A stretch of DNA of 43,656 nt from Vicinamibacteria bacterium (GTDB lineage: Bacteria; Acidobacteriota; Vicinamibacteria; Vicinamibacterales; UBA8438). The position numbers and the translations under genes are program-made. Below, in pieces: positions 1,924 through 32,561 of this stretch (positions are counted from its first letter, which is position 1; every line of letters starts with the position of its first letter). The stretch spans positions 1 through 43,656 of the forward strand of contig JAJEFC010000107.1 of assembly GCA_022820675.1 (NCBI GenBank), read 5' to 3'. Under the pieces are notes generated by a model, which did no database searches, was not told the DNA's origin, and saw only the letters and a list, made by a program, of their open reading frames with translations.

Positions 1924-3561
1924 TCACTCGTCCAGGCCGAACGTGTAGACGGTGTTCCCCACCGACATCGTGACGTACTGCGCGCCGTCGACGGCGTAGG
2001 TCATCGGGTTGGCGTTGACGGGGCCGCCGAGGGGGATGTGCCACAGCTCCTCCCCGGTCTCGGCGTCGAGGGCGAAGAAGTAGCCGTCGACGGTGGCGCT
2101 GAAGACGAGGTCGCCGGCCGTGGTCAGCACGCCCGAGCGGGCGCGCGGCTGCATCTCGAACTCCCAGCGGATGTCGCCGGTGGCGGGCTCGATGGCGCGG
2201 ATGGCGCTGCGGTAGTTGTCCATCGGCTGCGGCGACTGCACGCCGCCCGCGGTGTAGCGCTCGCCCTCGACGTAGTCCTCGTCGCGCAGGAAGAACCGGC
2301 CCTCGCCGTCGAACGAGTTGACGTAGAGCAGGCCGGTGCGGGGGTTGAACGCGGGCGACCACCAGTTGGTGGCGCCGCCCGCGGTCGGGGCCACCACCGT
2401 CCCGTCGGCCGAGGGGAACATGCCGGGCACCCGGATGGGGCGGCCGGTCGAGTCGAGGCCCTCGGCCCACGTCTGCAGCGCGAACGGCTTGCCGAGGAGG
2501 AACTCGCCCGTCGCGCGGTCGAGGGTGTAGTAGAAGCCGTTGTGGTTGGCCCACAGCATCGCCTGGCGCGGCTCGCCGTCCATCTCGATGTCGGCGAGGA
2601 CGGGAATCTGGATGGCGTCCCAGTCGTGGACGTCGTGGGGGGTGAACTGGAAGTACCACGCCATCTCGCCGGTGTCGCCGTCGAGGGCGAGCACCGAGTC
2701 GGCGTAGAGGTTGTCGCCCAGCCGCATCTCGCTGCCGTAGTCGGGGCCGGGGTTGCCGGTGCCCCAGTAGACGAGGTTCAGCTCGGGGTCGTACGAGCCG
2801 GTGATCCAGGTCGGCGACCCGCCCGTCCGCCACGAGTCGCCCAGCCACGTCCGGTTGTCGGGATGGTCGGGCCCGGGAATGGTGTAGGTGCGCCACTCGC
2901 GCTCGCCGCTCTCGGCGTCGTAGGCGTCGAGGAAGCCGCGGATGCCGAACTCGCCGCCGGCGATGCCCGTCACCACCCGGTCCTTGACGATGAGGGGGGC
3001 CGCCGTCTTGCTGTAGCCGCCCCGGTAGTCGGCGACCTCGGCGTCCCACACGAGGTTGCCGCTGCGCGCGTCGATGGCCACGAGGTGGGCGTCGAGGGTG
3101 CTCATGTAGAGGGTGTCGCCGAGGATGGCGACGCCGCGGTTGTTGCGCCCGCAGCAGATGCGCAGGTCGTCGGGCAGCGGGTGCTCGTAGCGCCAGTACG
3201 GGCGCCCGGTGGTCGCGTCGACTGCGGTCAGGTTGCTGGGCGACTCGGTGATGAACATCACCCCGTCGACGACGAGCGGGGTCGTCTCGGTGCGGTCGAG
3301 CTGGCGGATGCTGTAGGCCCACTTCAGCTCGAGGTCGGCGACGTTCGAGCGGTCGACCTGGTCGAGCCGGCTGAAGCGCTTGCTGTCGAGGGTGCCGCTG
3401 TACATGAGCCAGTTGTGCGGCTCGTCGGCGGCCGCGAGCAGCCGCTCCCAGGTGACGGGCGCGAACTGCGGCACGCCGGCGCCGGCGTCCGGCTCCTGGG
3501 CGGTCGTGAACGGGGCGGCAGCGAACAGGACGGCGGCGACGAAGATGGCAACCCGCTTCAT
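1924..3561 (-). CDS. Secreted PQQ-dependent alcohol dehydrogenase, lanthanide-type active site
   Basis: A 545-residue quinoprotein with signal peptide MKRVAIFVAAVLFAAAPFTTAQ and an eight-bladed propeller. It should oxidise an alcohol or aldehyde in the periplasm, passing electrons to a cytochrome c. Visible active-site elements are the vicinal Cys136-Cys137 (ICCGRNNRG), Glu204 (GGEFGIRG), Asn270 (GTGNPGPD) and Asp313 (TPHDVHDWDA). Asp315, two residues after the catalytic Asp, is the extra ligand that separates lanthanide-dependent (XoxF-like) from calcium enzymes, which have Ala there. I chose ATG 3561 because AGAGGAG precedes it at good spacing and the signal peptide begins there; a longer upstream frame encodes no recognisable protein. 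No cytochrome domain is fused and no partner cytochrome gene lies beside it. The substrate is unknown. Confidence 0.9.
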   Translation of the reverse strand: MKRVAIFVAAVLFAAAPFTTAQEPDAGAGVPQFAPVTWERLLAAADEPHNWLMYSGTLDSKRFSRLDQVDRSNVADLELKWAYSIRQLDRTETTPLVVDGVMFITESPSNLTAVDATTGRPYWRYEHPLPDDLRICCGRNNRGVAILGDTLYMSTLDAHLVAIDARSGNLVWDAEVADYRGGYSKTAAPLIVKDRVVTGIAGGEFGIRGFLDAYDAESGEREWRTYTIPGPDHPDNRTWLGDSWRTGGSPTWITGSYDPELNLVYWGTGNPGPDYGSEMRLGDNLYADSVLALDGDTGEMAWYFQFTPHDVHDWDAIQIPVLADIEMDGEPRQAMLWANHNGFYYTLDRATGEFLLGKPFALQTWAEGLDSTGRPIRVPGMFPSADGTVVAPTAGGATNWWSPAFNPRTGLLYVNSFDGEGRFFLRDEDYVEGERYTAGGVQSPQPMDNYRSAIRAIEPATGDIRWEFEMQPRARSGVLTTAGDLVFSATVDGYFFALDAETGEELWHIPLGGPVNANPMTYAVDGAQYVTMSVGNTVYTFGLDE

Positions 3562-3788
3562 GGCTTCATGCTCCTCTGTATCCGGCCGGGCACTTCCGGA
3601 ATCCGTGGCTCTCGACGGACGGTGTCGCCGTCGCCCGCCCGCTCCGTGGTGTTCTCGCCGATCCGGCACGTCGTGGCTCCGTTGGCCACGCCCTCCGCAG
3701 ATTCTAGATCGGACGCAGACTCCGGCGGCCGCCTCGCCGATCCCGGGTGGAGAACGAGGGAAGACCCTTGACCGAATCGACACATGAC

Positions 3789-3805
3789 GTTACCATTTGC
3801 GTAAC
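3789..3805. promoter_or_regulatory. Inverted repeat before toxin gene
   Basis: GTTAC at 3789-3793 and GTAAC at 3801-3805 flank seven bases, 14 bases before the TTG start of the next toxin gene. The surrounding AT content is higher than in neighbouring DNA. A promoter or antitoxin operator is plausible. Confidence 0.35.
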
Positions 3806-3818
3806 AAAATGAGTCGCT

Positions 3819-4154
3819 TTGGGCATCTTCTTCAAGACCCGCAGGCTGGCGAGGGTCTTCAACTCGGAACGTGAGCTCAGGAAACGCTACGGCGACCGCA
3901 TGGCGAAGACGATCGCGATGCGGCTCGCGGTCCTGAAGCACGCCCGGACGTTGTCGATGGTGCCGACGAGCCCTCCGGAACGTCGGCACCGGCTTGCCGG
4001 CAAACGGAAGGAGCAGTACGCCCTGGACCTCGTCCACCCGCACCGGCTCGTCTTCGAGCCGCGCAGGAGCTCGGGCGCGCCGGACGACGCCGAAGGCGGT
4101 GAGGCCGGTGGCGTGACCGCGATCACCGTCATCGAGGTAACCGACTACCACTAG
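3819..4154 (+). CDS. RelE/HigB-like killer protein (toxin)
   Basis: The 111-residue product begins FFKTRRLARVFNSERELRKRYGDRMAKTIAMRLAVL, contains ERRHRLAGKRKEQYALDLVHPHRLVFEP, and ends AITVIEVTDYH. I recognise this as the plasmid-maintenance killer-protein branch of the RelE/ParE superfamily, predicted to cleave mRNA on the ribosome. The start is TTG 3819; the nearby ATG at 3809 is in another frame and no clear ribosome-binding site is visible. The next gene, 149 bases downstream, encodes an XRE plus ImmA/IrrE protein, the usual antitoxin partner of this toxin branch. Function is by family; no catalytic residue was assigned. Confidence 0.8.
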   Translation: MGIFFKTRRLARVFNSERELRKRYGDRMAKTIAMRLAVLKHARTLSMVPTSPPERRHRLAGKRKEQYALDLVHPHRLVFEPRRSSGAPDDAEGGEAGGVTAITVIEVTDYH

Positions 4155-4303
4155 GGAGGCTCCGCCTCAGACCGACGAGGCATGTAGGCCCGCGCAGTCG
4201 CCGATGCTGTGGTGCTCCCATGGCAGCGAACAAGACACGACTAAACTTGACTCAACTGTAAGGACCACGCCCGTTCAAGGAGTCTAGGGAGAGGAGGGGG
4301 GAC

Positions 4304-5389
4304 ATGCCGGCGGCCACCAACCGGTACGAGCCGGACTACGCGGTTCCGCCTGGCCACGTGCTGAAGGAGCGTCTGGACGCGCAGGGCATGACGCCCGCCG
4401 AGTTCGCGCGGCGGTGCGGCCGCTCGGCGAAGCTCATCAGCGAGATCGTCGCCGGCAAGGCGCCGATCGAGCCCCGGACCGCCCTTCAGTTCGAGAAGGT
4501 GCTCGGCGTGGACGCCGGGATCTGGCTCGGCATCGAGACGGACTACCGACTGCAACAGACGCGCGCGGCCGCGGCCGAAGAATCGGCCGCGGCCGGAGCG
4601 TGGTCGAGGTCCTTCCCGCTCCGTGAACTGGCGAGACGGGGCATCAAGCCGGCAACTGACGAGGACATGGCATCGGCGCTGCTGTCCTTCTTCGGCGTGG
4701 CGTCGGTAGACGCCTGGCACGTCAAGTACGGGGCGAAGAACGTCGCCTACCGCCACTCGCCCAGCTTCGAGAGTGACAGCTTCGCTCTGGCCGCCTGGCT
4801 TCGACTCGCAGAGATTGACGCCGCCGGTCAGCGGTGCGCCGACTACCGCCCATCGGCGTTCAGAGCGGCGCTTCGCGAGATGCGTCGACTGACCCGCACA
4901 CCGGTGCCGGAATCGCTCGAAGAGGCGCGACGGCTCTGCAACCGGGCGGGCGTGACCTTGTCGCTCGTCGAGCCGCTACCGCGAACCCGCTTGAGTGGTG
5001 CGGCCTGGTGGCCCTCCGCCCGCCACCCGGCCATCGCGCTGAGCGCACGGCACAAGACGGACGACCACTTGTGGTTCAGCCTGTTCCACGAGGCCGCCCA
5101 CATCCTGCTGCACGGCAAGAGGAACGTGTTCGTCGACGGAGCCGCGGGCAACGGCAACGACGAGGAAACTGAAGCGAACGACTGGGCGGCCGACTTCCTG
5201 TTGCCGCGCGCGGCCTGGCGCCGTTTCGTTGACGGCGGCTCGTACAACCGGGCAACGGTGCTGCGATTCGCCGAAGAACAGGAGATCGCGCCCGGGATCG
5301 TCGTCGGCGGCCTCCAGCACGCCGGGCACCTTCCGTGGAACCGTTTGAACAGGCTCAAGGTACGGCTGCAGTGGACGAAAGCCGCCTGA
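4304..5389 (+). CDS. Antitoxin with XRE HTH and ImmA/IrrE metallopeptidase domain
   Basis: A 361-residue two-domain protein. Residues about 15-75 form a HigA-like HTH (PPGHVLKERLDAQGMTPAEF, then SAKLISEIVAGKAPIEPRTAL). The C-terminal half is an ImmA/IrrE-type zinc peptidase with HEAAH in FSLFHEAAHILLHGK and the supporting EANDWAADFLLP segment. In this family the HTH represses the operon and the peptidase-like domain binds or senses the toxin. A strong AGGAGGGGGG lies just before the ATG. The 149-base spacer from the toxin contains the small palindrome TTGACTCAA, a possible operator. The HEXXH glutamate and both histidines are present, so proteolysis is possible. Confidence 0.85.
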   Translation: MPAATNRYEPDYAVPPGHVLKERLDAQGMTPAEFARRCGRSAKLISEIVAGKAPIEPRTALQFEKVLGVDAGIWLGIETDYRLQQTRAAAAEESAAAGAWSRSFPLRELARRGIKPATDEDMASALLSFFGVASVDAWHVKYGAKNVAYRHSPSFESDSFALAAWLRLAEIDAAGQRCADYRPSAFRAALREMRRLTRTPVPESLEEARRLCNRAGVTLSLVEPLPRTRLSGAAWWPSARHPAIALSARHKTDDHLWFSLFHEAAHILLHGKRNVFVDGAAGNGNDEETEANDWAADFLLPRAAWRRFVDGGSYNRATVLRFAEEQEIAPGIVVGGLQHAGHLPWNRLNRLKVRLQWTKAA

Positions 5390-20460: not shown

Positions 20461-20772
20461 ATGCACACACCGTGCGATGATCACGACTTGAGCAGCTTTG
20501 ACTGGAACACGTCCAAGAACCGGCAGCTCATCGACGAACGAGGACTCTCGTTCGAGAGGGCCGTTTCTGCCATCGAACACGGAGGCCTCCTGGACGTGGT
20601 GGAGCATCCGAATCGCCGCCGATACCCGGGACAACGGATATACGTGGTGGAGATCGAGGGCTACGTTCATCTCGTCCCCTTCGTGACCGAAGCGGACGGC
20701 ACGCGCTTTCTGAAGACGATCATACCGAGCCGACGCGCGACGCGCGACTATCGCAGGAGACATCGGACGTGA
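20461..20772 (+). CDS. brnT: BrnT-family toxin
   Basis: A 103-residue protein with SSFDWNTSKNRQLIDERGLSFERAVSAIEHGGLLDVVEHPNRRRYPGQRIYVVEIEGYVHLVPFVTE...FLKTIIPSRRATRDYRR. This is the BrnT fold: FDW..KN, a central strand ending in R.YVVEI and the terminal T.IIPSR.AT. BrnT is a RelE-like ribonuclease inhibited by BrnA. ATG 20461 has no clear ribosome-binding site; TTG 20488 would place FDW nearer the start, as is usual. The stop overlaps the start of brnA (GTGA). Confidence 0.87.
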   Translation: MHTPCDDHDLSSFDWNTSKNRQLIDERGLSFERAVSAIEHGGLLDVVEHPNRRRYPGQRIYVVEIEGYVHLVPFVTEADGTRFLKTIIPSRRATRDYRRRHRT

Positions 20773-21056
20773 GCGAGAAGCTGAGCCCCGAGGAGCGAGA
20801 GATCCTCGACCATTTCGAGCGCCAAGCGCTACACTCCGTCGCCGATGTCGAGCACGAGCTCGAAACGGCGCGTCAGGCCGCCCGGAACACGTTCCACAAA
20901 ACCCGGCGTGTCAATCTCCGTGTGACGGAACGCGATTTCGAACTCGCCCACACGCTCGCCAGGGAAGAGGGCATTCCCTGCCAGACGCTGCTATCCAGCG
21001 TCATTCACAAGTACCTGGCCGGCCGACTGGTCGAAAGGCCTGAGCGGGAGCGGTGA
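20769..21056 (+). CDS. brnA: BrnA-like antitoxin
   Basis: A 95-residue protein beginning [42 protein letters not shown] and ending in a ribbon-helix-helix-like part (RRVNLRVTERDFELAHTLAREEGIPCQTLLSSVIHKYLAGRL). It should bind BrnT and repress the operon. GTG 20769 overlaps the brnT stop. Its first half is repeated almost exactly at the start of the chimeric gene at 22742, after hsdM. This copy is complete. Confidence 0.85.
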   Translation: MSEKLSPEEREILDHFERQALHSVADVEHELETARQAARNTFHKTRRVNLRVTERDFELAHTLAREEGIPCQTLLSSVIHKYLAGRLVERPERER

Positions 21057-21082
21057 CCAGACGGCAACGACGCCGACTATTT

Positions 21083-21101
21083 GGCCGGCAGACCGCCGGC
21101 C
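21083..21101. terminator. Hairpin between brnA and hsdM
   Basis: GGCCGGC (21083-21089) and GCCGGCC (21095-21101) enclose AGACC. It lies 26 bases after brnA and 70 bases before hsdM. There is no T-run, so termination is only possible. The relic copy at 17710 retains part of it. Confidence 0.35.
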
Positions 21102-21170
21102 GGTTGTACGCTATCGGGTGCGGAACCGGATAGCCGCTCCTGTCCGGGTTCGTGCGACGGAGGTCACGAC

Positions 21171-22745
21171 ATGGCGCGACGGCGGTCGGGGAAGCGGGCA
21201 GGTGAGGCGGCGGTGGCCCCGAACGGGGCCACGGTCGGCCATGAAGCCGAGCTGTGGGCGATGGCCGACGCCCTGCGGGGCTCGATGGACGCCGCCGAGT
21301 ACAAGCACGTCGTGCTCGGCCTGATCTTCCTGAAGTACATCTCCGACGCCTTCGAGGAGCGCCATGCCACGGTGCTGGCCGAGCTCGGGGAAGACGCGGC
21401 CGAGGACCGCGACGAGTACACCGCCGAGAACATCTTCTGGGTGCCGCCGGAGGCGCGCTGGACGCACCTGAAGGCCCAGGCGAGACAGTCGACCGTCGGC
21501 CTGACCGTCGATCAGGCGATGGCGGCGATCGAGCGCGACAACCCCGCGCTCGAGGACGTGCTGCCGCGCGACTACGCCCGGCCCGCGCTGGACAAGCGCC
21601 GGCTCGGGCAGTTGATCGACCTCGTCAGCAACATCCAGGTGGGCGACGAGGACGCCCGCTCGCGCGACGTGCTCGGCCGCGTCTACGAGTACTTCCTCTC
21701 GCAGTTCGCGAGCGCCGAGGGCAAGAAGGGCGGCGAGTTCTACACCCCGCGCTGCGTCGTCAAGGTGCTCGTCGAGATGCTCGAGCCGTACCGCGGCCGG
21801 GTCTACGACCCCTGCTGCGGCTCGTCGGGCATGTTCGTGCAGTCGGTGGCCTTCATCCGCGCCCACGCCAGCGGCAACGGGAACGGCGGGAAGGCCCGGG
21901 CCGACATCAGCATCTACGGCCAGGAGTCGAACTACACGACGTGGCGGCTGGCGAAGATGAACCTCGCCATCCGCGGCATCGAGGGGCAGATCGGCCACGG
22001 CGACAGTTTCCACGACGACCGTCACCCAGACCTGAAGGCCGACTTCATCCTCGCCAACCCCCCGTTCAACGTGTCGGACTGGGGCGGCGAGCGGCTGGCC
22101 GACGACAAGCGCTGGCGCTACGGCGTGCCGCCCAAGGGCAACGCCAACTTCGCCTGGGTGCAGCACATGGTGCACCACCTCGCGCCGGCCGGCGTCGCCG
22201 GCTTCGTGCTCGCCAACGGGTCGATGTCGTCGAGCCAGTCGGGCGAGGGCGAGATTCGGAAGAACCTGATCGAGGCCGACCTCGTGGACAGCATGGTCGC
22301 CCTGCCGGGCCAGCTCTTCTACTCGACCCAGATTCCCGCCTGCCTCTGGTTCGTGGCCCGCCGCCGCCCGCGCCGCGGCGAGGTGCTGTTCATCGACGCC
22401 CGCAAGCTCGGACGGATGGTCGACCGCACCCATCGCGAGCTGACCGACGACGACATCGCCCGCATCGCCGGCGCCTACCACGCGTGGCGCGACGGTGCGG
22501 ATGTCTACGAAGACCTCGCCGGCTTCTGCAAGAGCGCCCCGCTCGACGAGGTGCGCCGGCACGGGCACGTCCTGACGCCGGGGCGCTACGTGGGCGCGGA
22601 GCCGCAGCCGGACGACGGGGAGCCGTTCGAGGCCAAGATGCGGCGGCTCGTGGCCGAGCTGCAGCTGCAGCAGGCCGAGGGGGCGCGGCTCGACGCCGCC
22701 ATCGCCGAGAACCTGAAGGCGCTGGGGTTCGGAGCTGACGAATGA
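21171..22745 (+). CDS. hsdM: Type I restriction-modification system DNA methyltransferase subunit
   Basis: A 524-residue HsdM. Residues 25-180 form the N-terminal helical HsdM_N domain ([38 protein letters not shown]). SAM-binding motif I is DPCCGSSGM at 213-221, and the N6-adenine catalytic motif NPPF is at 296-299. The C-terminus contacts HsdS. With two HsdM and one HsdS it methylates adenines in a bipartite target. ATG 21171 has GGAGG seven bases upstream. The stop overlaps the ATG of the next frame (ATGA). The length is normal and all key motifs are present. Relics of a second copy lie at 17710 and 20353. Confidence 0.95.
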
Positions 22746-22963
22746 CCGCGAGCGCCGTGAGCCAGAAGTTGAGCCCCGAGGAGCGAGAGATCCTCGAGCA
22801 GTTCGAGCGGCGAGCGTTACACCCCGTCGCCGATATCGAGTACGAGCTCGAAATGGCGCGTCAGGCCGCCCGCAACACGTTCCGCCGTCGCCCGCATCCC
22901 CGCGACGACCTCGCGCCCGGCACCTGGCGCAGCATCGTGAAGAAGGCCGGCTTGGACGAGTGA
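22742..22963 (+). CDS. Chimeric BrnA(N)-HicA(C) gene
   Basis: The 73-residue frame joins two families. Residues about 6-52 ([41 protein letters not shown]) copy the N-terminal half of BrnA at 20769 with few changes. The last 26 residues ([26 protein letters not shown]) are the C-terminal end of a HicA toxin, whose family ends H.G.DL.PGTLRSI..QAGL. HicA's first half, including its double-stranded-RNA-binding-like core and catalytic histidine, is missing, so it cannot act as a normal toxin. ATG 22742 overlaps the hsdM stop; GTG 22757 matches the BrnA start. hicB follows after 18 bases. It is probably a recombination product that may or may not be expressed. Confidence 0.7.
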
Positions 22964-22981
22964 GGAAGCACGGAGCAAGCC

Positions 22982-23200
22982 ATGGAGTACTCCGTCGTCA
23001 TCGAACAGACACCACGGAACTTCTCGGCCTTCGCGCCGGACCTGCCCGGCTGTGTCGCAATGGGCGCCACCCGGGACGAGGTGATCGCCGAGATGCGTGC
23101 GGCCATCGTCTTCCACATCGAGAGCCTGCGCGAACACCGCGAACCCGTGCCGGCGCCGCGCTGCACCACCGCCGTCGTGGCCGTGTCTGCCGCAGATTGA
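22982..23200 (+). CDS. hicB: HicB-family antitoxin
   Basis: A 72-residue protein: MEYSVVIEQTPRNFSAFAPDLPGCVAMGATRDEVIAEMRAAIVFHIESLREHREPVPAP. This is the partial-RNase-H-like HicB fold without a separate DNA-binding domain. HicB binds and neutralises HicA. Here the toxin gene just upstream keeps only its last 26 codons, so this antitoxin appears orphaned. GGAG lies six bases before the ATG. It sits inside the hsd operon between hsdM and hsdS. Confidence 0.85.
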   Translation: MEYSVVIEQTPRNFSAFAPDLPGCVAMGATRDEVIAEMRAAIVFHIESLREHREPVPAPRCTTAVVAVSAAD

Positions 23201-23522: not shown

Positions 23523-23964
23523 ATGAGACTCGACCTGACACCGCTCGATGATGCGATTGCCCAGTTGCAGGAGGCACTGGCCTACCACGCCTCTGACCTT
23601 GCGTCGCGCGATCCCGCTCTCAAGCTGCACCTTCGGGCAGCCGCAATCCAGGCCCTTCGAGTTCACCTACGAGCCGTCCCTCAAGATGGCGAAGCGCCAT
23701 CTCGAACAGGTCTCCCCGAATCCCGCCGAGTTCGACGAGATGAGCTTCAAGGCCATCATGCGCGAGGCCTTCCGCCGCGGGTTGGTACAGTCGGACGTGT
23801 CCATCTGGGACCAGTACCGGACGCTTCGCGGCACGACCAGTCACACCTACAACGCAGGCAAGGCGCAGATGGTCTTCGAGAGCCTGACGGATTTCCTCCG
23901 GGAGGCCAGATTCCTCCGGGACCAGCTTCAGCAGAGGAACGACTCCCTTGACGACCCCGATTGA
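23523..23964 (+). pseudogene. HI0074-type nucleotidyltransferase substrate-binding protein, frameshifted
   Basis: Two frames together make one family member. From ATG 23523 the frame reads MRLDLTPLDDAIAQLQEALAYHASDLASRDPALKLHLRAAAIQA. The continuation FEFTYEPSLKMAKRHLEQVSPNPAEFDEMSFKAIMREAFRRGLV...YRTLRGTTSHTYNAGKAQMVFESLTDFLREARFL is one frame later and ends at 23964. One extra C in the CCC run at 23653-23655 explains the break; without it the protein would be about 146 residues. HI0074-like proteins pair with small nucleotidyltransferases (HI0073-like); here that partner is the N-terminal domain of the overlapping next gene. It is either a real inactivation or a homopolymer sequencing error. 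Confidence 0.8.
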
Positions 23965-25660
23965 CATCCGCGCCGACCACCTGGACACCGTCCACGACGT
24001 GCTAGCTCGACATCTGCCGGGCGGCGTGCGGGTCTGGGTCTTCGGGAGCCGCGCCACGTGGGCGACGAAGGACTCGTCCGACCTGGACCTCGCTCTCGAG
24101 GGTGACGGCGAAATCCCGGCACGCAGCCTGTCCGCACTCGAAGCCGCGTTCGAGGACTCGGACCTGCCGTACGCGGTGGATGTCGTGGACACCAGGCGGA
24201 TCGGTGAACGTTTCCGAGAGATAGTGGCGGAGCAACGGGTAGCGTTGCCAGAGAAAGACCGCTCACGCGCCACCGACGGGAGCAGCGGAGACCCTTTTGG
24301 TGCTCTGCCACGTGGATGGGAGCGGTCAACACTAGGGGCTGCCTGCGAGCGCGGTGGCGGCAACATCCAGACCGGACCGTTCGGCAGCCAACTCCACGCT
24401 TCCGACTACCGACCCGTCGGTACACCGTCCATCATGCCTCAGAACCTCGGTGACAATCGCGTCATCGCGGACGGAATCGCACGCGTTGGAGACAGTGACG
24501 CCAATCGCTTGCGGCGCTACTTGGTCCGCGAGGGCGATATCGTCTACAGCCGCCGCGGTGATGTCGAGAAGCGAGCGCTCATCGGACCCCATGAGGACGG
24601 GTGGCTGTGCGGGACCGGTTGCCTTCGCGTACGCCTAGGCGAGAACGGCGCGGACCCCAGATACGCCTCGTACTATCTGGGGCACCCCGCCGTTCGCGAA
24701 TGGATCGTCCGCCATGCTCATGGCGCGACCATGCCGAATCTGAACACGGCGATACTGTCTGCCTGCCCATTCGTCGCACCGCCGATTCCCGAGCAGCGTG
24801 CCATCGCGTACGTCCTCGGGACGCTGGACGACAAGATCGAGCTGAACCGTCGGATGAACGCGACGCTGGAAGCGATGGTCCGGGCGCTGTTCCGGTCCTG
24901 GTTCGTCGATTTCGACCCAGTGCGGGCCAAGATGGATGGCCGCGACACCGGGCTGCCGAAGGACATCGCCGACCTGTTCCCAGACCGGCTGGTGGTTTCG
25001 GAGCTGGGGGAGATTCCAGAGGGCTGGGAATCAACACGGTTGGACAACGTCGCGACCATCACGAAGGGACGATCGTACAGACGCCGCGAACTGGTTGCGT
25101 CGGACACCGCGCTCGTGACACTGAAGTCCTTCGCTCGCGGTGGTGGATATCGTACTGAGGGTCTGAAGTCTTTCGGCGGCGCGTACAAGAGTGAGCAGGT
25201 AGTCCAGCCCGGCGAGGTGATTGTGGCGTGCACGGACGTGACGCAGGCAGCGGAGGTGGTGGGGCGGTCCGCCGTCGTCGGCGAGACATCATCATTTCGA
25301 ACGCTGGTGGCTTCGTTGGACGTCTTGATCGTGCGACCGAAGAACGCCGCACCTGGACGCGCGTTCGTCCACTACGTCACCGGAACCGAGAATTTCGTAA
25401 CGCACGCCCTCGCGCGCACTACGGGAACGACGGTCTTGCATCTCTCCAAAGATGCGGTCGCGTCCTTCCCGTTCGCCCTGCCGCCAAGGCGGTTGACGGA
25501 ACGTTTTGGACATCTCGCAGATTCACTGCGCGCCCGAATCCAGGCCAATGCATCCGCAGTTGAGCTGCTCGCAGATGTACGGAATACGCTGCTTCCGAAG
25601 CTGGTTTCCGGCGAGTTGCGAGTTCGCGACGTCGAGAAGCTCATCGGAGCAATCGCATGA
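23948..25660 (+). CDS. hsdS: HsdS specificity subunit with N-terminal nucleotidyltransferase domain
   Basis: A 570-residue fusion. Residues 1-105 form an MNT/HI0073-like nucleotidyltransferase: WVFGSRATWATKDSSDLDLAL gives Gly33-Ser34 and the metal pair Asp45/Asp47, with a third Asp at 78 or 81. From about 118 it is a standard HsdS: LPRGWERSTLG opens target-recognition domain 1 (118-275), then PEQRAIAYVLGTLDDKIELNRRMN (280-325) is the conserved spacer helix, EIPEGWESTRLDNV opens domain 2 (about 355-520), and a second helix ends the protein. HsdS sets the DNA target of the methylase and nuclease. TTG 23948 lies inside the end of the HI0074-like frame, the usual overlap of that pair. No stop or frameshift separates the two domains. 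Confidence 0.88.
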   Translation: MTTPIDIRADHLDTVHDVLARHLPGGVRVWVFGSRATWATKDSSDLDLALEGDGEIPARSLSALEAAFEDSDLPYAVDVVDTRRIGERFREIVAEQRVALPEKDRSRATDGSSGDPFGALPRGWERSTLGAACERGGGNIQTGPFGSQLHASDYRPVGTPSIMPQNLGDNRVIADGIARVGDSDANRLRRYLVREGDIVYSRRGDVEKRALIGPHEDGWLCGTGCLRVRLGENGADPRYASYYLGHPAVREWIVRHAHGATMPNLNTAILSACPFVAPPIPEQRAIAYVLGTLDDKIELNRRMNATLEAMVRALFRSWFVDFDPVRAKMDGRDTGLPKDIADLFPDRLVVSELGEIPEGWESTRLDNVATITKGRSYRRRELVASDTALVTLKSFARGGGYRTEGLKSFGGAYKSEQVVQPGEVIVACTDVTQAAEVVGRSAVVGETSSFRTLVASLDVLIVRPKNAAPGRAFVHYVTGTENFVTHALARTTGTTVLHLSKDAVASFPFALPPRRLTERFGHLADSLRARIQANASAVELLADVRNTLLPKLVSGELRVRDVEKLIGAIA

Positions 25661-25743: not shown

Positions 25744-26871
25744 ATGCGAGTCAGCATTCGCGACCGGGGTTCGCTGTCGGCGGTTTCGCCGGCGGCGCTG
25801 TCGGCGTACGCCCGCGCGGCGGGTTGGCGTCGGTACGAGCCGTATGGCGAGCACTCGGACGTCTACGCCGGTGAGTCGCGCCCGGAGATCATCGTTCCGC
25901 GCACGCAGTGCCTGGGCGACTACGCGAGCGTCGTGGCGACGCTGATCGACACGTTCGCCGGTGTCAGCGGGCAGGACGAGTTGAGCGTCTATCGCTCTTT
26001 GGCGACGGCGGACCGGGACGTGGTCCGCGTTCGCGCCGCGGAGAGCGACGACGGCAGCGTGACCTTGAACGACGGCGTCGACCTCATCGGCGGCGCCCGC
26101 GATCTCCTGCTGTCGGTGGCGTGCTCACTTCGCGAGCCGCAACCGGTCTACCGAGCCGGGGCGAACCGGGAGGCGGCGGATCTGCTGAGGCAGATGCGGC
26201 TTGGGCAGACGGACCAGGGCAGCTTCGTGGTGACGCTGCTGACGCCGGTCGTGCCGCCACCGATGCCGGCGTTGTTCCCGGACCCGGATGATTGGTACGC
26301 GCCCATCGAACGCCGGATGACGCGGCGGCTGGTCGAGGCCGTCACCGCGGCGCGGCAAGCGACGGAACGGGCGTCCGCCGGTGATGACGGCGCGTTCGAG
26401 GAGACGGTCGCCAGCGGCGTGAGCGCCAATTTGTGCGAGGCTCTGGTTCGGATCATCGAACCGTTCCGGACGCTGGACGTGGACGTCTCGTGGGCGCGGA
26501 CTCGGCCGGTTGCGGCAACCGGAACCGTCACCCGTTTCGGCCGGGCGGATGCGGCGCTGCTGCGCGAAGCGGCGCGTTTGCTCCGTGACCGTGCGCCGCG
26601 GCTGGACGTGCGACTCCACGGCTTCATTCGACGCCTGAAGCGCGGAGAGGCGGGCGACGACGGAACCATCAGCCTGCAGGCCAAGATCGACGGCCAACGG
26701 CAGTCGGTCGTGGCCGTGCTGGAGCAGGCGGACTACGAGCGGGCGGTTCAGGCCCACAGGGATCGCGCACTAGTCGTGCTGGCGGGCGATCTCGAGCGCA
26801 CGGGCCAGCGGTGGAGGTTGCTGAATCCACACGTTGAAGGCGTCCTTCGCGACGAGCGTGACGATGGCTGA
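25744..26871 (+). CDS. Unrecognised 375-residue protein inside the hsd operon
   Basis: From ATG 25744 (GGAG seven bases before it) the product reads MRVSIRDRGSLSAVSPAALSAYARAAGW, GEHSDVYAG, a central YRAGANREAADLLRQMRLGQTDQGSFVVTLLTPVVPP, and a C-terminal part with RADAALLREAARLLRDRAPRLDVRLHGFIRRLKRGEAGDDGTISLQAKIDGQRQSVVAVLEQADYERAVQAHRDRALVVLAGDL. The last segment looks like mixed alpha/beta with an OB- or ubiquitin-like strand set, but I cannot name a family. An in-frame ATG at 25657 overlapping the hsdS stop is possible; the 29 residues between are Arg/His-rich and less protein-like. The stop overlaps the next start by eight bases. Soluble, no signal peptide. Confidence 0.8.
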   Translation: MRVSIRDRGSLSAVSPAALSAYARAAGWRRYEPYGEHSDVYAGESRPEIIVPRTQCLGDYASVVATLIDTFAGVSGQDELSVYRSLATADRDVVRVRAAESDDGSVTLNDGVDLIGGARDLLLSVACSLREPQPVYRAGANREAADLLRQMRLGQTDQGSFVVTLLTPVVPPPMPALFPDPDDWYAPIERRMTRRLVEAVTAARQATERASAGDDGAFEETVASGVSANLCEALVRIIEPFRTLDVDVSWARTRPVAATGTVTRFGRADAALLREAARLLRDRAPRLDVRLHGFIRRLKRGEAGDDGTISLQAKIDGQRQSVVAVLEQADYERAVQAHRDRALVVLAGDLERTGQRWRLLNPHVEGVLRDERDDG

Positions 26872-27313
26872 TTCGGGTCTCACCCAGGCGGAAGCGGACG
26901 CGCTCATCGCGTTGGAGAAGCGCCGGGTTGGCGAGGAGGAGTGGCACTATCCCGACTTGGGCGGAGCAATCACGATTCCGCTGGTGTCGACGGACCGGCG
27001 TGAGCCGTTCCTTCTGGATCTGCGACGGTCACGGATCGATCTCGCCAAGAACACGTACCAGAACCGCGGGCGGCAGACAGTAGTCCTTGTGCGACTGGAC
27101 TTGGGCGCCAGGCCGCATCGCAACCCGGATGGGGAGGAGGTCGGTTCGCCACATCTTCACCTCTACCGCGAGGGCTTCGGCGACAAGTGGGCGTACGGTC
27201 CGCCGACGGATCGGTTCGTCGATTTGGAGGATCCCTGGCGGACCCTTCAGGATTTCATGCAGTTCTGCCGTGTCGTCGAGGCGCCGATCATCCAACGGGG
27301 GTTGTTCACATGA
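26864..27313 (+). CDS. DUF6978-like protein
   Basis: A 149-residue protein: [21 protein letters not shown], then [84 protein letters not shown], ending [20 protein letters not shown] recognise the 'F.LDI.R..I.L.K.T.Q.R.R....L.RLD' and 'PHLH.Y.EG.GDKWA' blocks from a family recorded as DUF6978, usually encoded beside DUF1828/DUF1829 proteins, as here. Function is unknown. ATG 26864 overlaps the previous stop by eight bases, and its own stop overlaps the next ATG, so all three are coupled. Confidence 0.75.
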
Positions 27314-28073
27314 TGGGGGAAGTGCAGGCGTTGCTGGATCAGTACCGGACCTGGCTGCGTGACAAGACGACCCTGCGCCAGGTCGATGAGTGGATCGAAA
27401 TCACCACACCGTACCTGGATCGCCACAACGACTGCCTTCAGATCTACGCCAGGCGCGCCGACGGGGGGTTCGTGCTGACGGACGACGGCTACATCATCGA
27501 GGACCTGGAACAGTCCGGCTGCAGAATCGACGGCGGCCGGCGGCGGGCCTTGCTCGACACGACGCTCAACGGCTTCGGCGTGCAGATCAACAAGACCGCC
27601 CTCGAGGTGCGGGCGTCGAGCGACAACTTCGCGCTGCGAAAGCACAATCTGATCCAGGCAATGCTCGCCGTGAACGATCTCTTTTACCTGGCGTCGTCGG
27701 GCGATCGCCAGCCCGTGTTCCACGAGGACGTGGTGGCCTGGCTGGATTTCGCGGAGATCCGATACACGCCCAACGCGAAGTTCACCGGCAAGAGCGGCTA
27801 TGACCACCGGTTCGACTTCGTGATACCGAAGTCGAGAGACCAGCCGGAGCGCGTGCTGCGCGCCATCAATCGCCCAGGTCGTGACACCGCGCAGTCGGTG
27901 GCGTTCTCCTGGATCGACACCCGGGAGGTGCGTGCTCCCGACTCCCGCGCCTATGCGATTCTGAATGACTCAGAACGGCCGGTCTCGGCGAGTGTGCTGG
28001 GCGCCATGCGCAGCTATGACGTGCGACCCATCCCGTGGTCGGACCGAGAGGGAGCGCGTGAGGAGTTGGCGGC

Positions 28074-28077
<4 letters not shown>
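27310..28077 (+). CDS. DUF1828 and DUF1829 domain protein
   Basis: A 255-residue protein. Residues about 28-120 match DUF1828: [45 protein letters not shown]...[13 protein letters not shown]. Residues about 155-240 match DUF1829: ARYTPN-like [38 protein letters not shown]...[11 protein letters not shown]. Neither domain has a known function; the fold pair is found in accessory regions of many bacteria. ATG 27310 overlaps the DUF6978 stop (ATGA) and the gene's own stop overlaps the hsdR GTG (GTGA). The chain places it firmly inside the restriction operon. Confidence 0.85.
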
Positions 28078-31259
<3,182 letters not shown>

Positions 31260-31341
31260 CTCGGAGCCGCTGCACGCTGGTGACGCCGATGTACGGTGGC
31301 GGCTTGAAGCGGTTGGCCGTCGCGTTGCATCGGGCGGGCGG

Positions 31342-31394
31342 CTTGATCGGGCGACCGATCAGGAATATGTTCCTGATTGGTCGAGCCAATCAGG
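31342..31394 (+). promoter_or_regulatory. Leader with three mutually overlapping hairpins
   Basis: H1: CTTGATCGG (31342-31350) with CCGATCAGG (31355-31363) around a GCGA tetraloop, one G-U pair. H2: ATCAGGAA (31358-31365) with TTCCTGAT (31370-31377) around TATG. H3: CCTGATTGG (31372-31380) with CCAATCAGG (31386-31394) around TCGAG. H2 shares bases with both neighbours, so H1+H3 and H2 exclude each other. The 3' arm of H3 runs into AGGAG (31392-31396), the only Shine-Dalgarno-like sequence before ATG 31408. The position suggests attenuation or an operator array for the ATPase gene. Confidence 0.55.
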
Positions 31395-31407
31395 AGCCAG
31401 CTCCCGC

Positions 31408-32561
31408 ATGAGCTTCGCCAGAACCCTCACCATGGACTTGCCGGCGGGCCAGTCCGCCTTTCTGTGGGGCGCCCGGCAGACCGGGAAGTCGACCTTCCTC
31501 CGCGAGCGGTTTCCGGCCGGCGTGCACATCGACCTGCTGGACTTCGACACCCGGCTCGCCCTGAGCGCGCGCCCGTCCCGGCTCGGCGAGCAACTGGACG
31601 CGGCCGCCCCGGAGGTCCTCGCGCACCCGGTCGTCATCGACGAAATCCAGAAGGCGCCGGGGCTCCTCGACGAGGTGCACCGGCTGATCGAGTCCCGCCG
31701 CCTGTCCTTTGTGCTGTGCGGGTCGAGCGCCCGGAAGCTCAAGCGCGCCGGCGTCAACCTGCTCGGCGGGCGCGCCTGGCGCTTCGAGATGTTCCCGCTC
31801 ACCTGGCGGGAAATACCCGACTTCGACCTGCTGCGCGCCCTGAACCGCGGCCTGCTGCCGGGCGTCTACACCCGGCCGCAGTACCGGCGGTCGCTGGCGG
31901 CCTACGTGCGGGACTATCTGACGCAAGAGGTCTTCAACGAGGCGCTCACCCGCAACGCCGCCGCCTTCACCCGGTTCTTCGAGGCGTTGCGCTTCTGTCA
32001 CGGCGAGTTGCTGAACTACGCGGCCATCGCCCGCGACTGCGGCGTCGACGCCAAGACCGTGCGCACGTACTTCGAGATACTGCAGGACACGCTGGTCGGC
32101 TATCTGATCCGCCCCTTCCACCACCGCCCCGGCCGCCAGAGCATCTCCGCCGCGCCGAGGTTCTATCTGTTCGACGTGGGCGTGGCCGGCCACGTCTGCC
32201 GCAGGGTCCTCACGGACGCCGCGGCACGGAGTTCGGCCGGGCGTTCGAGCACTTCCTCCTGCTCGAGATCATCGCCGCCCGCGGCTACCGGGAGCAGTCG
32301 TGGCCCGTCGAGTTCTGGCGGACCAAGAGCGGGCTGGAGGTGGACTTCGTGCTGAACGAGGGCGAGGTCGCGGTCGAGGCGAAGGCCCGCGTGCGCGGCG
32401 GCGACCTGCGCCCGATGACCGCCTTCGTGGAGGAGTTCGCCCCGCGCCGGGCGATCGTCGTCACCGCCGAGAACGACCGCCGACGCGTCGGCGGCATCGA
32501 CGTCATGCCCTACACCGAGTTTCTGGAACTGCTGCACGGCGGGACGCTGCTCGAATGCTGA
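31408..32561 (+). pseudogene. DUF4143-type AAA ATPase, frameshifted near the C-terminal domain
   Basis: From ATG 31408 the frame reads SFARTLTMDLPAGQSAFLWGARQTGKSTFL (Walker A at 21-28), then VVIDEIQKAPGLLDEVHRLI (Walker B near 75-80) and LCGSSARKLKRAGVNLLGGRAW. It continues through AAYVRDYLTQEVF...[32 protein letters not shown] to [20 protein letters not shown]. The expected continuation, [55 protein letters not shown], is in another frame ending at 32561. A single-base loss near 32210-32225 accounts for it. The C-terminal part is the PD-(D/E)xK-like domain of these ATPases. Intact length would be about 384 residues. The family is common in accessory DNA; its role is unknown. A sequencing error is not excluded. 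Confidence 0.85.

What the first reader, a model, noticed from the sequence alone, without database searches (positions are those of the whole stretch)
23948..25660. Nucleotidyltransferase domain fused to the N-terminus of HsdS
One open frame carries an MNT/HI0073-like nucleotidyltransferase (GSRA, then SDLDLA with Asp45/Asp47) and a complete two-domain HsdS. The gene just upstream is the HI0074-type substrate-binding partner of such enzymes and overlaps the TTG start by 17 bases, as in ordinary HI0074/HI0073 pairs. Some MNT enzymes act as antitoxins that nucleotidylate a partner. A covalent link to the specificity subunit suggests that restriction could be tied to nucleotidyl transfer, for example as a safety lock or a control on HsdS. 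The domains and overlap are seen; the coupling model is inference.
Basis: partly seen in the sequence, partly recalled or inferred. Interest (0 to 1): 0.82.

Follow-up and report, generated by a model that had tools for sequence, protein, structure and literature searches.

The report
Toxin-neutralising enzyme fused to restriction subunit
In many bacteria the part of a type I restriction enzyme that chooses the DNA site carries, on the same protein chain, the enzyme that normally disarms a neighbouring RNA-cutting toxin, which suggests that cells punish the loss or sabotage of their restriction system by releasing the toxin.

Summary
ORF 23948-25660 is an open 570-aa MNT::HsdS fusion: a complete HI0073-like nucleotidyltransferase (GSX10DXD), a disordered linker, and a full two-TRD HsdS, lying between hsdM and hsdR.

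The fusion is not unique. Over 50 N-terminal fusions from about a dozen bacterial phyla carry the same operon, hsdM - HEPN - MNT::hsdS - hsdR. One is on the finished Zymomonas mobilis plasmid pZMOB01. A mirror form (HsdS::MNT, then HEPN) and an MNT::HsdM fusion also exist, so the fusion arose at least three times. In 41 loci MNT divergence tracks HEPN (r 0.66) but not HsdS or HsdM (about -0.1 to -0.2), although MNT and HsdS are one chain. This marks MNT as the antitoxin of a class I type VII HepT/MntA-like pair rather than a regulator of HsdS.

Best reading: a HEPN RNase toxin whose AMPylating antitoxin is welded to the restriction complex, an addiction or guard device like PrrC-EcoprrI. Toxicity, AMPylation and guarding are inferred. 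No paper found describes it; 'Cmr1-MntA' (PDB 9z7q) is the nearest precedent. New variant of a known kind.

The parts
23948..24253 (+). MNT (HI0073/MntA-like) nucleotidyltransferase domain, residues 1-102 of the fusion; GSX10DXD at residues 33-47, third Asp D78
   Evidence: Pfam PF18765/PF01909; invariant G33 S34 R35 S44 D45 D47 in 33 fusions; model matches HI0073 1no5 (TMt 0.86-0.87) and the Legionella MNT antitoxin 8xeo (rmsd 1.5-1.7)
24254..24301 (+). flexible linker, residues 103-118
   Evidence: pLDDT below 50 at residues 104-113 in the AlphaFold2 model
24302..25660 (+). complete HsdS: two target-recognition domains and two long spacer helices (residues 280-320 and 514-554)
   Evidence: Methylase_S; PADLOC Specificity_I 124-566; model matches HsdS 1yf2, 5ybb, 7vs4
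23523..23654 (+). 5' part (44 codons) of the HI0074-type HEPN gene, in frame 23523
   Evidence: HEPN profile positions 2-45 match, E 4e-9
23653..23655 (+). CCC with one extra C: +1 frameshift that splits the HEPN gene in this genome
   Evidence: relatives L095, L096, L017 read GCGTTCGAG here; window reads GCCCTTCGAG
23656..23964 (+). 3' part of the HEPN gene with RX4HXY motif (RGTTSHTY); its end overlaps the TTG start of the fusion by 17 bases
   Evidence: PF08780 2.1e-21, TIGR01987 HI0074 68.4 bits vs cut-off 55.8, motif
21081..22745 (+). hsdM (type I N6-adenine methyltransferase; the ORF opens at TTG 21081, the real start is probably the ATG at 21171)
   Evidence: N6_Mtase 4.5e-105, HsdM_N 5.7e-28
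28074..31259 (+). hsdR
   Evidence: HSDR_N, SWI2_SNF2, T1RH-like_C; TIGR00348 568 bits
25657..26871 (+). accessory ORF between hsdS and hsdR, PADLOC candidate PDC-M02B
   Evidence: PDLC04298 1.9e-119
26834..28077 (+). accessory genes DUF6978 (26834-27313) and DUF1828/DUF1829 (27187-28077), PADLOC candidates PDC-M24A/B
   Evidence: Pfam, PADLOC

Best explanation
The locus is a type I restriction-modification operon with a built-in class I HEPN/MNT (type VII, HepT/MntA-like) toxin-antitoxin module whose antitoxin is part of HsdS. Shown here: a HEPN gene of the HI0074 family with an RX4HXY motif lies directly upstream of, and usually overlaps, an MNT domain with an intact GSX10DXD site that is the N-terminus of HsdS. 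The module sits between hsdM and hsdR, evolves as a HEPN+MNT unit, and has been attached to restriction subunits repeatedly, at either end of HsdS and also on HsdM. Inferred from characterised HepT/MntA pairs: HEPN is an RNase, and the MNT domain transfers AMP to the Tyr of RX4HXY and silences it. Inferred from position and from the PrrC-EcoprrI precedent: because the antitoxin exists only as part of HsdS, and so of the M2S/R2M2S complex, loss of the restriction genes or attack on the complex by a phage anti-restriction factor would leave new HEPN unmodified. The result would be growth arrest or abortive infection. In this particular genome the toxin frame is broken, so the device may be disarmed here.
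For: Fusions with the same gene order in many phyla and on a finished cultured plasmid. HEPN directly upstream in 52 of 55 N-terminal fusions, 44 of them with full R-H-Y. MNT motif intact in 33/33 aligned fusions. All long-frame hits checked in about 1,046 genomes of three phyla are HsdS or HsdM fusions, apart from one unrelated read-through frame. Mirror fusions HsdS::MNT followed by HEPN and MNT::HsdM. MNT-HEPN distance correlation 0.66, MNT-HsdS core -0.20, MNT-HsdM -0.11, HsdS core-HsdM 0.72. One MNT with a dead Asp has a decayed HEPN. Folds of HEPN and MNT match solved AMPylated-HEPN and MNT structures. AMPylation chemistry: PMC7641770, PMC11586414. A type I R-M enzyme silencing a HEPN-type nuclease: PMC2610378, PMC3874165.
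Against: The HEPN gene is frameshifted in the window. A clade of fusions (L043, L071, L119, L120) has lost the RX4HXY motif in HEPN while keeping MNT, and two fusions have no detectable HEPN (L038, L172). No toxicity, AMPylation or complex formation was tested. NCBIfam's MntA model is matched by all 33 domains but below its cut-off for the window (39.5 vs 60). Nothing here separates simple addiction from sensing of phage anti-restriction.
Confidence: 0.62

Rival explanations
1. Neutral or selfish cassette: HEPN-MNT toxin-antitoxin pairs insert often into hsdMSR operons, and MNT fuses to the next gene by chance stop-codon loss without any functional coupling.
For: Unfused pairs sit just before hsdS in Acetobacter plasmids, the stop being 1-12 bases from the hsdS start. 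HEPN-MNT evolves independently of HsdS. Toxin-antitoxin pairs are mobile (PMC2701414).
Against: Fused MNT in the samples is fused only to HsdS or HsdM. Fusion occurs at both ends of HsdS and on HsdM. Unfused neighbours of hsdS are rare next to fused ones. The fused form persists across phyla with MNT dN/dS of about 0.16-0.29 against the three nearest relatives.
Confidence: 0.2
2. One reading: MNT nucleotidylates HsdS, HsdM or HsdR and so works as a switch or safety lock on restriction, with HEPN only a substrate-binding subunit.
For: Covalent link; active-site residues intact; HI0074 was first described as a substrate-binding domain (title of PDB 1jog).
Against: MNT does not co-vary with HsdS or HsdM but does with HEPN. 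HEPN keeps the RX4HXY catalytic and acceptor motif in 44 loci. The one MNT with a lost Asp coincides with HEPN decay.
Confidence: 0.08
3. Effector tethering: HEPN is held on the restriction complex by the MNT domain and is released or de-modified when the complex engages foreign DNA, so restriction is the sensor and HEPN a downstream effector.
For: Same genes and physical link; Cmr1-MntA in a type III CRISPR complex shows MntA joined to another DNA/RNA-sensing defence complex; PrrC is sequestered inside a type I enzyme complex (PMC3874165).
Against: No data here on conformational coupling; the linker in the model is flexible.
Confidence: 0.1

Closest known systems
Type VII toxin-antitoxin HepT/MntA (class I HEPN/MNT; S. 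oneidensis SO_3166/SO_3165, L. pneumophila HEPN-MNT, HI0074/HI0073)
   Same: GSX10DXD MNT next to an RX4HXY HEPN; Pfam pair PF08780 with PF01909/PF18765; folds match 1no5, 8xeo, 1jog, 8xdj
   Different: The antitoxin is not a small free protein but the N-terminal (rarely C-terminal) domain of a restriction subunit, inside an hsdMSR operon
PrrC-EcoprrI (anticodon nuclease held silent by a type I restriction enzyme; phage T4 Stp releases it)
   Same: A toxic nuclease of the HEPN superfamily encoded within, and kept silent by, a type I R-M system (PMC2610378, PMC3874165)
   Different: PrrC has an ABC-ATPase part and no MNT antitoxin; here silencing would be by a covalently attached adenylyltransferase
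Cmr1-MntA of type III-B CRISPR (PDB 9z7q, 9z7v, 9z7x)
   Same: MntA-type domain fused to a core subunit of a defence complex; a homologous gene with a HEPN neighbour was found in L128
   Different: CRISPR effector subunit instead of HsdS; C-terminal fusion; no paper on it found in the library
PADLOC profile PDLC03138 (Specificity_I, 485 positions)
   Same: All 33 MNT domains match it, the window's at profile positions 2-102: this architecture was silently included in a type I S-subunit family
   Different: Described only as a type I specificity subunit, with no mention of MNT or toxin-antitoxin

Membership tests
Class I HEPN/MNT (type VII) toxin-antitoxin | MNT protein with GSX10DXD | tested here: met
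   GSRATWATKDSSDLD in the window; 33/33 fusions
Class I HEPN/MNT (type VII) toxin-antitoxin | Adjacent HEPN with RX4HXY | tested here: met
   RGTTSHTY in the 3' part of the window gene; R-H-Y in 44 fused loci
Class I HEPN/MNT (type VII) toxin-antitoxin | Intact HEPN reading frame | tested here: not met
   Frameshift at 23653-23655 in the window; intact in relatives L095, L096, L017
Class I HEPN/MNT (type VII) toxin-antitoxin | NCBIfam MntA_antitoxin NF047752 at its curated cut-off | tested here: not met
   39.5 bits vs 60 for the window domain, although all 33 members match the model
Class I HEPN/MNT (type VII) toxin-antitoxin | HEPN is toxic and is AMPylated and neutralised by MNT | not testable with these tools
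   needs expression assays
HI0074 family nucleotidyltransferase substrate-binding subunit | TIGR01987 above cut-off | tested here: met
   68.4 bits for the 3' part alone vs 55.8; 29 of 31 partners match the model at E 0.001 or better
Type I restriction-modification system | HsdM, HsdS with two TRDs, and HsdR in one operon | tested here: met
PrrC/EcoprrI-type guarded nuclease | ABC-ATPase fused to the nuclease | tested here: not met
   HEPN partner is a single-domain HI0074-type protein
PrrC/EcoprrI-type guarded nuclease | Toxin silenced by the R-M complex and freed by an anti-restriction factor | not testable with these tools
   works-like claim only

The most novel reading that the evidence does not exclude
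A widespread, previously undescribed class of guarded restriction systems: the adenylyltransferase antitoxin of a HEPN RNase is covalently part of HsdS (or HsdM), so that assembly or survival of the restriction complex is what keeps the toxin AMPylated, and phage anti-restriction proteins or loss of the genes trigger RNA-based abortive infection. Together with Cmr1-MntA it would be one case of a general rule, namely MntA antitoxins welded to subunits of defence complexes.
Probability: 0.45. Interest if true: 0.88.

Novelty: new variant of a known kind. Interest (0 to 1): 0.74.

Why it matters
PrrC-EcoprrI has long been the main example of a toxic nuclease guarded by a type I restriction enzyme. 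If this reading is right, many bacteria carry a second, unrelated solution in which the antidote is physically part of the restriction enzyme. It would explain why the module recurs at HsdS and HsdM, give HepT/MntA pairs a concrete job, and make the question of what triggers a type VII toxin testable with anti-restriction proteins. A finished system in cultured Zymomonas mobilis makes the test practical.

Tried and rejected
Frameshift or assembly artefact joining two genes: rejected, because the fusion recurs in more than 50 loci and in complete records. Chance ORF: rejected, since both domains have strong profile hits and conserved sites. Simple read-through frames: L123, L126, L127, L129 and L130 gave long frames with MNT at one end but no HsdS, and were not counted. 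Fusions in phages or viral contigs: none found. MNT as a modifier of HsdS: disfavoured by the co-variation test. A single origin of all fusions: not favoured, since the MNT tree needs about 24 changes for N-terminal fusion, at least 10 of them forced by starred branches; but the 103-column tree is weak and cannot tell gain from loss or transfer. Literature searches for an MNT-HsdS fusion found nothing relevant; subscription papers and preprints were not searchable. Only single-chain structure prediction was available, so the HEPN-fusion complex was not modelled.

Full report
Observation. The frame 23948-25660 is open from TTG to stop, 570 aa. It carries a nucleotidyltransferase at residues 18-105 (Pfam Polbeta and NTP_transf_2) and an HsdS at residues 124-566. 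AlphaFold2 on 33 fused relatives gives mean pLDDT 88.7, a compact N-domain, a disordered linker (104-113) and a full HsdS with two recognition domains and two long helices. Foldseek matches the HsdS part to solved HsdS chains, and the N-domain to HI0073 (1no5) and to the Legionella MNT antitoxin (8xeo). hsdM lies upstream and hsdR downstream.

The partner gene. The gene upstream belongs to the HI0074 family (PF08780, TIGR01987) and carries RGTTSHTY, an RX4HXY motif. In the window it is split by one extra C at 23653-23655; the relatives are in frame. The HEPN profile positions 2-45 and 45-141 match in two different frames. The 3' part still has low dN/dS against the three nearest relatives (0.20-0.32), so the break is recent or a sequencing error.

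Relatives. A scan of 84,980 species genomes returned 80 best loci. About 33 carry the MNT domain on the HsdS frame, in Acidobacteriota, Chloroflexota, Gemmatimonadota, Pseudomonadota, Nitrospirota, Bacteroidota, Rhodothermota, Verrucomicrobiota, Poribacteria and others. Nearly all have an HI0074-type gene directly upstream; in the combined set the distance from the last HEPN codon to the MNT domain is -19 to +3 bases. hsdM usually lies upstream and hsdR downstream where the contig reaches. G33, S34, R35, S44, D45 and D47 are invariant in 33 MNT domains, and D78 is at least 90% conserved. In the combined set of 55 N-terminal fusions, 52 have HEPN upstream, 44 with R, H and Y all kept.

How common. 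Profile searches with the MNT alignment over three phylum samples gave 33, 32 and roughly 88 MNT matches at E 1e-15 or better (396 Acidobacteriota genomes; 301 in the phylum of Chloroflexota locus L021; 349 in the phylum of Pseudomonadota locus L026). Fused frames occur in 7, 7 and 11 of these genomes, a few of which were the seeds. Every fused frame whose neighbourhood was read is an HsdS fusion, except one MNT::HsdM; one further long frame (L123) was an unrelated read-through. Only the best candidates per genome were scored, so these are lower bounds, although a full rescoring of 61 Pseudomonadota genomes changed little.

Other architectures. (a) In three genomes of one Acidobacteriota family the order is mirrored: HsdS::MNT with MNT at the C-terminus, then HEPN with RNATVHEY, then hsdR (L125, L199, L179); a fourth copy (L178) is disrupted. 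(b) L164 has HEPN - MNT::HsdM followed by HEPN - MNT::HsdS. (c) Unfused stages exist: Acetobacter plasmids carry hsdM - HEPN - MNT - hsdS - hsdR as separate genes with touching ends, and L042, L049 and L174 carry a separate HEPN-MNT pair beside hsdM as well as the fused one. The two ends of HsdS are structurally equivalent, as circular permutation shows (PMC3874165), so N- and C-terminal fusions probably place MNT at a similar spot on the complex (inference). N-terminal HsdS, C-terminal HsdS and HsdM fusions must be separate events; the MNT tree suggests more among the N-terminal ones but is weakly resolved.

What MNT serves. Over 41 fused loci the distance matrices of MNT and HEPN correlate (Spearman 0.66, Mantel p 0.001), as do the HsdS core and HsdM (0.72), but MNT against the HsdS core (-0.20) or HsdM (-0.11) does not, although MNT and HsdS are one polypeptide. 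HEPN+MNT therefore behaves as one module exchanged as a unit on restriction operons. In L168 the first catalytic Asp is Ala and the HEPN gene has decayed. This points to HEPN, not HsdS, as the client of MNT.

Chemistry by homology. In class I HEPN/MNT pairs, defined as PF01934 or PF08780 with PF01909, MntA uses GSX10DXD to AMPylate the Tyr of RX4HXY and silences the HepT RNase (PMC7641770; Legionella: PMC11586414). The window pair and its relatives carry both motifs. HEPN and MNT folds match those structures. Toxicity and AMPylation were not tested here.

Mechanism. The most economical model is a guarded or addictive restriction system: HEPN is kept harmless by an antitoxin that exists only as part of HsdS. 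Loss of the restriction genes or phage attack on the complex would free HEPN. PrrC, an anticodon nuclease silenced by the type I enzyme EcoprrI and released by T4 Stp, is the working precedent (PMC2610378, PMC3874165). Shown: architecture, conservation, co-variation, recurrence. Inferred: RNase toxicity, AMPylation, guarding, trigger.

Novelty. No paper in the held library describes MNT fused to HsdS. The HEPN survey (PMC3710099) reports HEPN fusions to nucleases and helicases and HEPN genes in R-M operons; a text search of it for HsdS or specificity subunit finds no mention. PADLOC's PDLC03138 silently contains the architecture, and the Zymomonas protein is annotated simply as restriction endonuclease subunit S. 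PDB entries 9z7q, 9z7v and 9z7x, named Cmr1-MntA, show the same idea in a type III CRISPR complex. I therefore call it a new variant of a known kind.

Test system. Zymomonas mobilis ATCC 10988 plasmid pZMOB01 carries hsdM (30878-32470), HEPN (3-392), MNT::HsdS (389-1972; GSRARWTAKDYSDLD) and hsdR (1969-5154) in a complete sequence of a harmless, culturable organism.

Noticed in passing
L128:2960-4607: An Acidobacteriota genome carries Cmr1 (RAMP) fused at its C-terminus to an MNT domain, followed by a PF08780 HEPN gene; it matches PDB 9z7q 'Cmr1-MntA' at 371 bits.
   Followed up: partly
L164:3193-6879: One operon has HEPN - MNT::HsdM followed by HEPN - MNT::HsdS; this HsdS has lost its first recognition domain.
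   Followed up: partly
window 26834-28077; also L049, L051, L080: DUF6978 and DUF1828/DUF1829 genes (PADLOC PDC-M24A/B) recur next to hsdS in these operons; single members also lie near hsdM in L043, L071 and L079.
   Followed up: no
window 20461-21056 and 22742-23200: A BrnT/BrnA-like pair (by eye) precedes hsdM, and a second copy of the BrnA-like N-terminus ([10 protein letters not shown]..FERxALHxVAD) follows hsdM, running into a different tail next to a HicB-like gene: looks like a recombined chimera of toxin-antitoxin genes.
   Followed up: no
L137:4513-8017 (Acetobacter pasteurianus pAPA01-020): hsdS is interrupted by an IS5 transposase and hsdR is short, yet HEPN and MNT upstream are intact: the toxin-antitoxin pair outlives the restriction system when it is not fused.
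   Followed up: partly
L043, L071, L119, L120: A clade of fusions in which HEPN lost the R, H and Y of RX4HXY while MNT kept GSX10DXD; the partner may have become a pure binding subunit.
   Followed up: partly
L171:3034-3857 and L025:375-1899: Two or three HEPN genes in a row stand upstream of a single MNT::HsdS.
   Followed up: no
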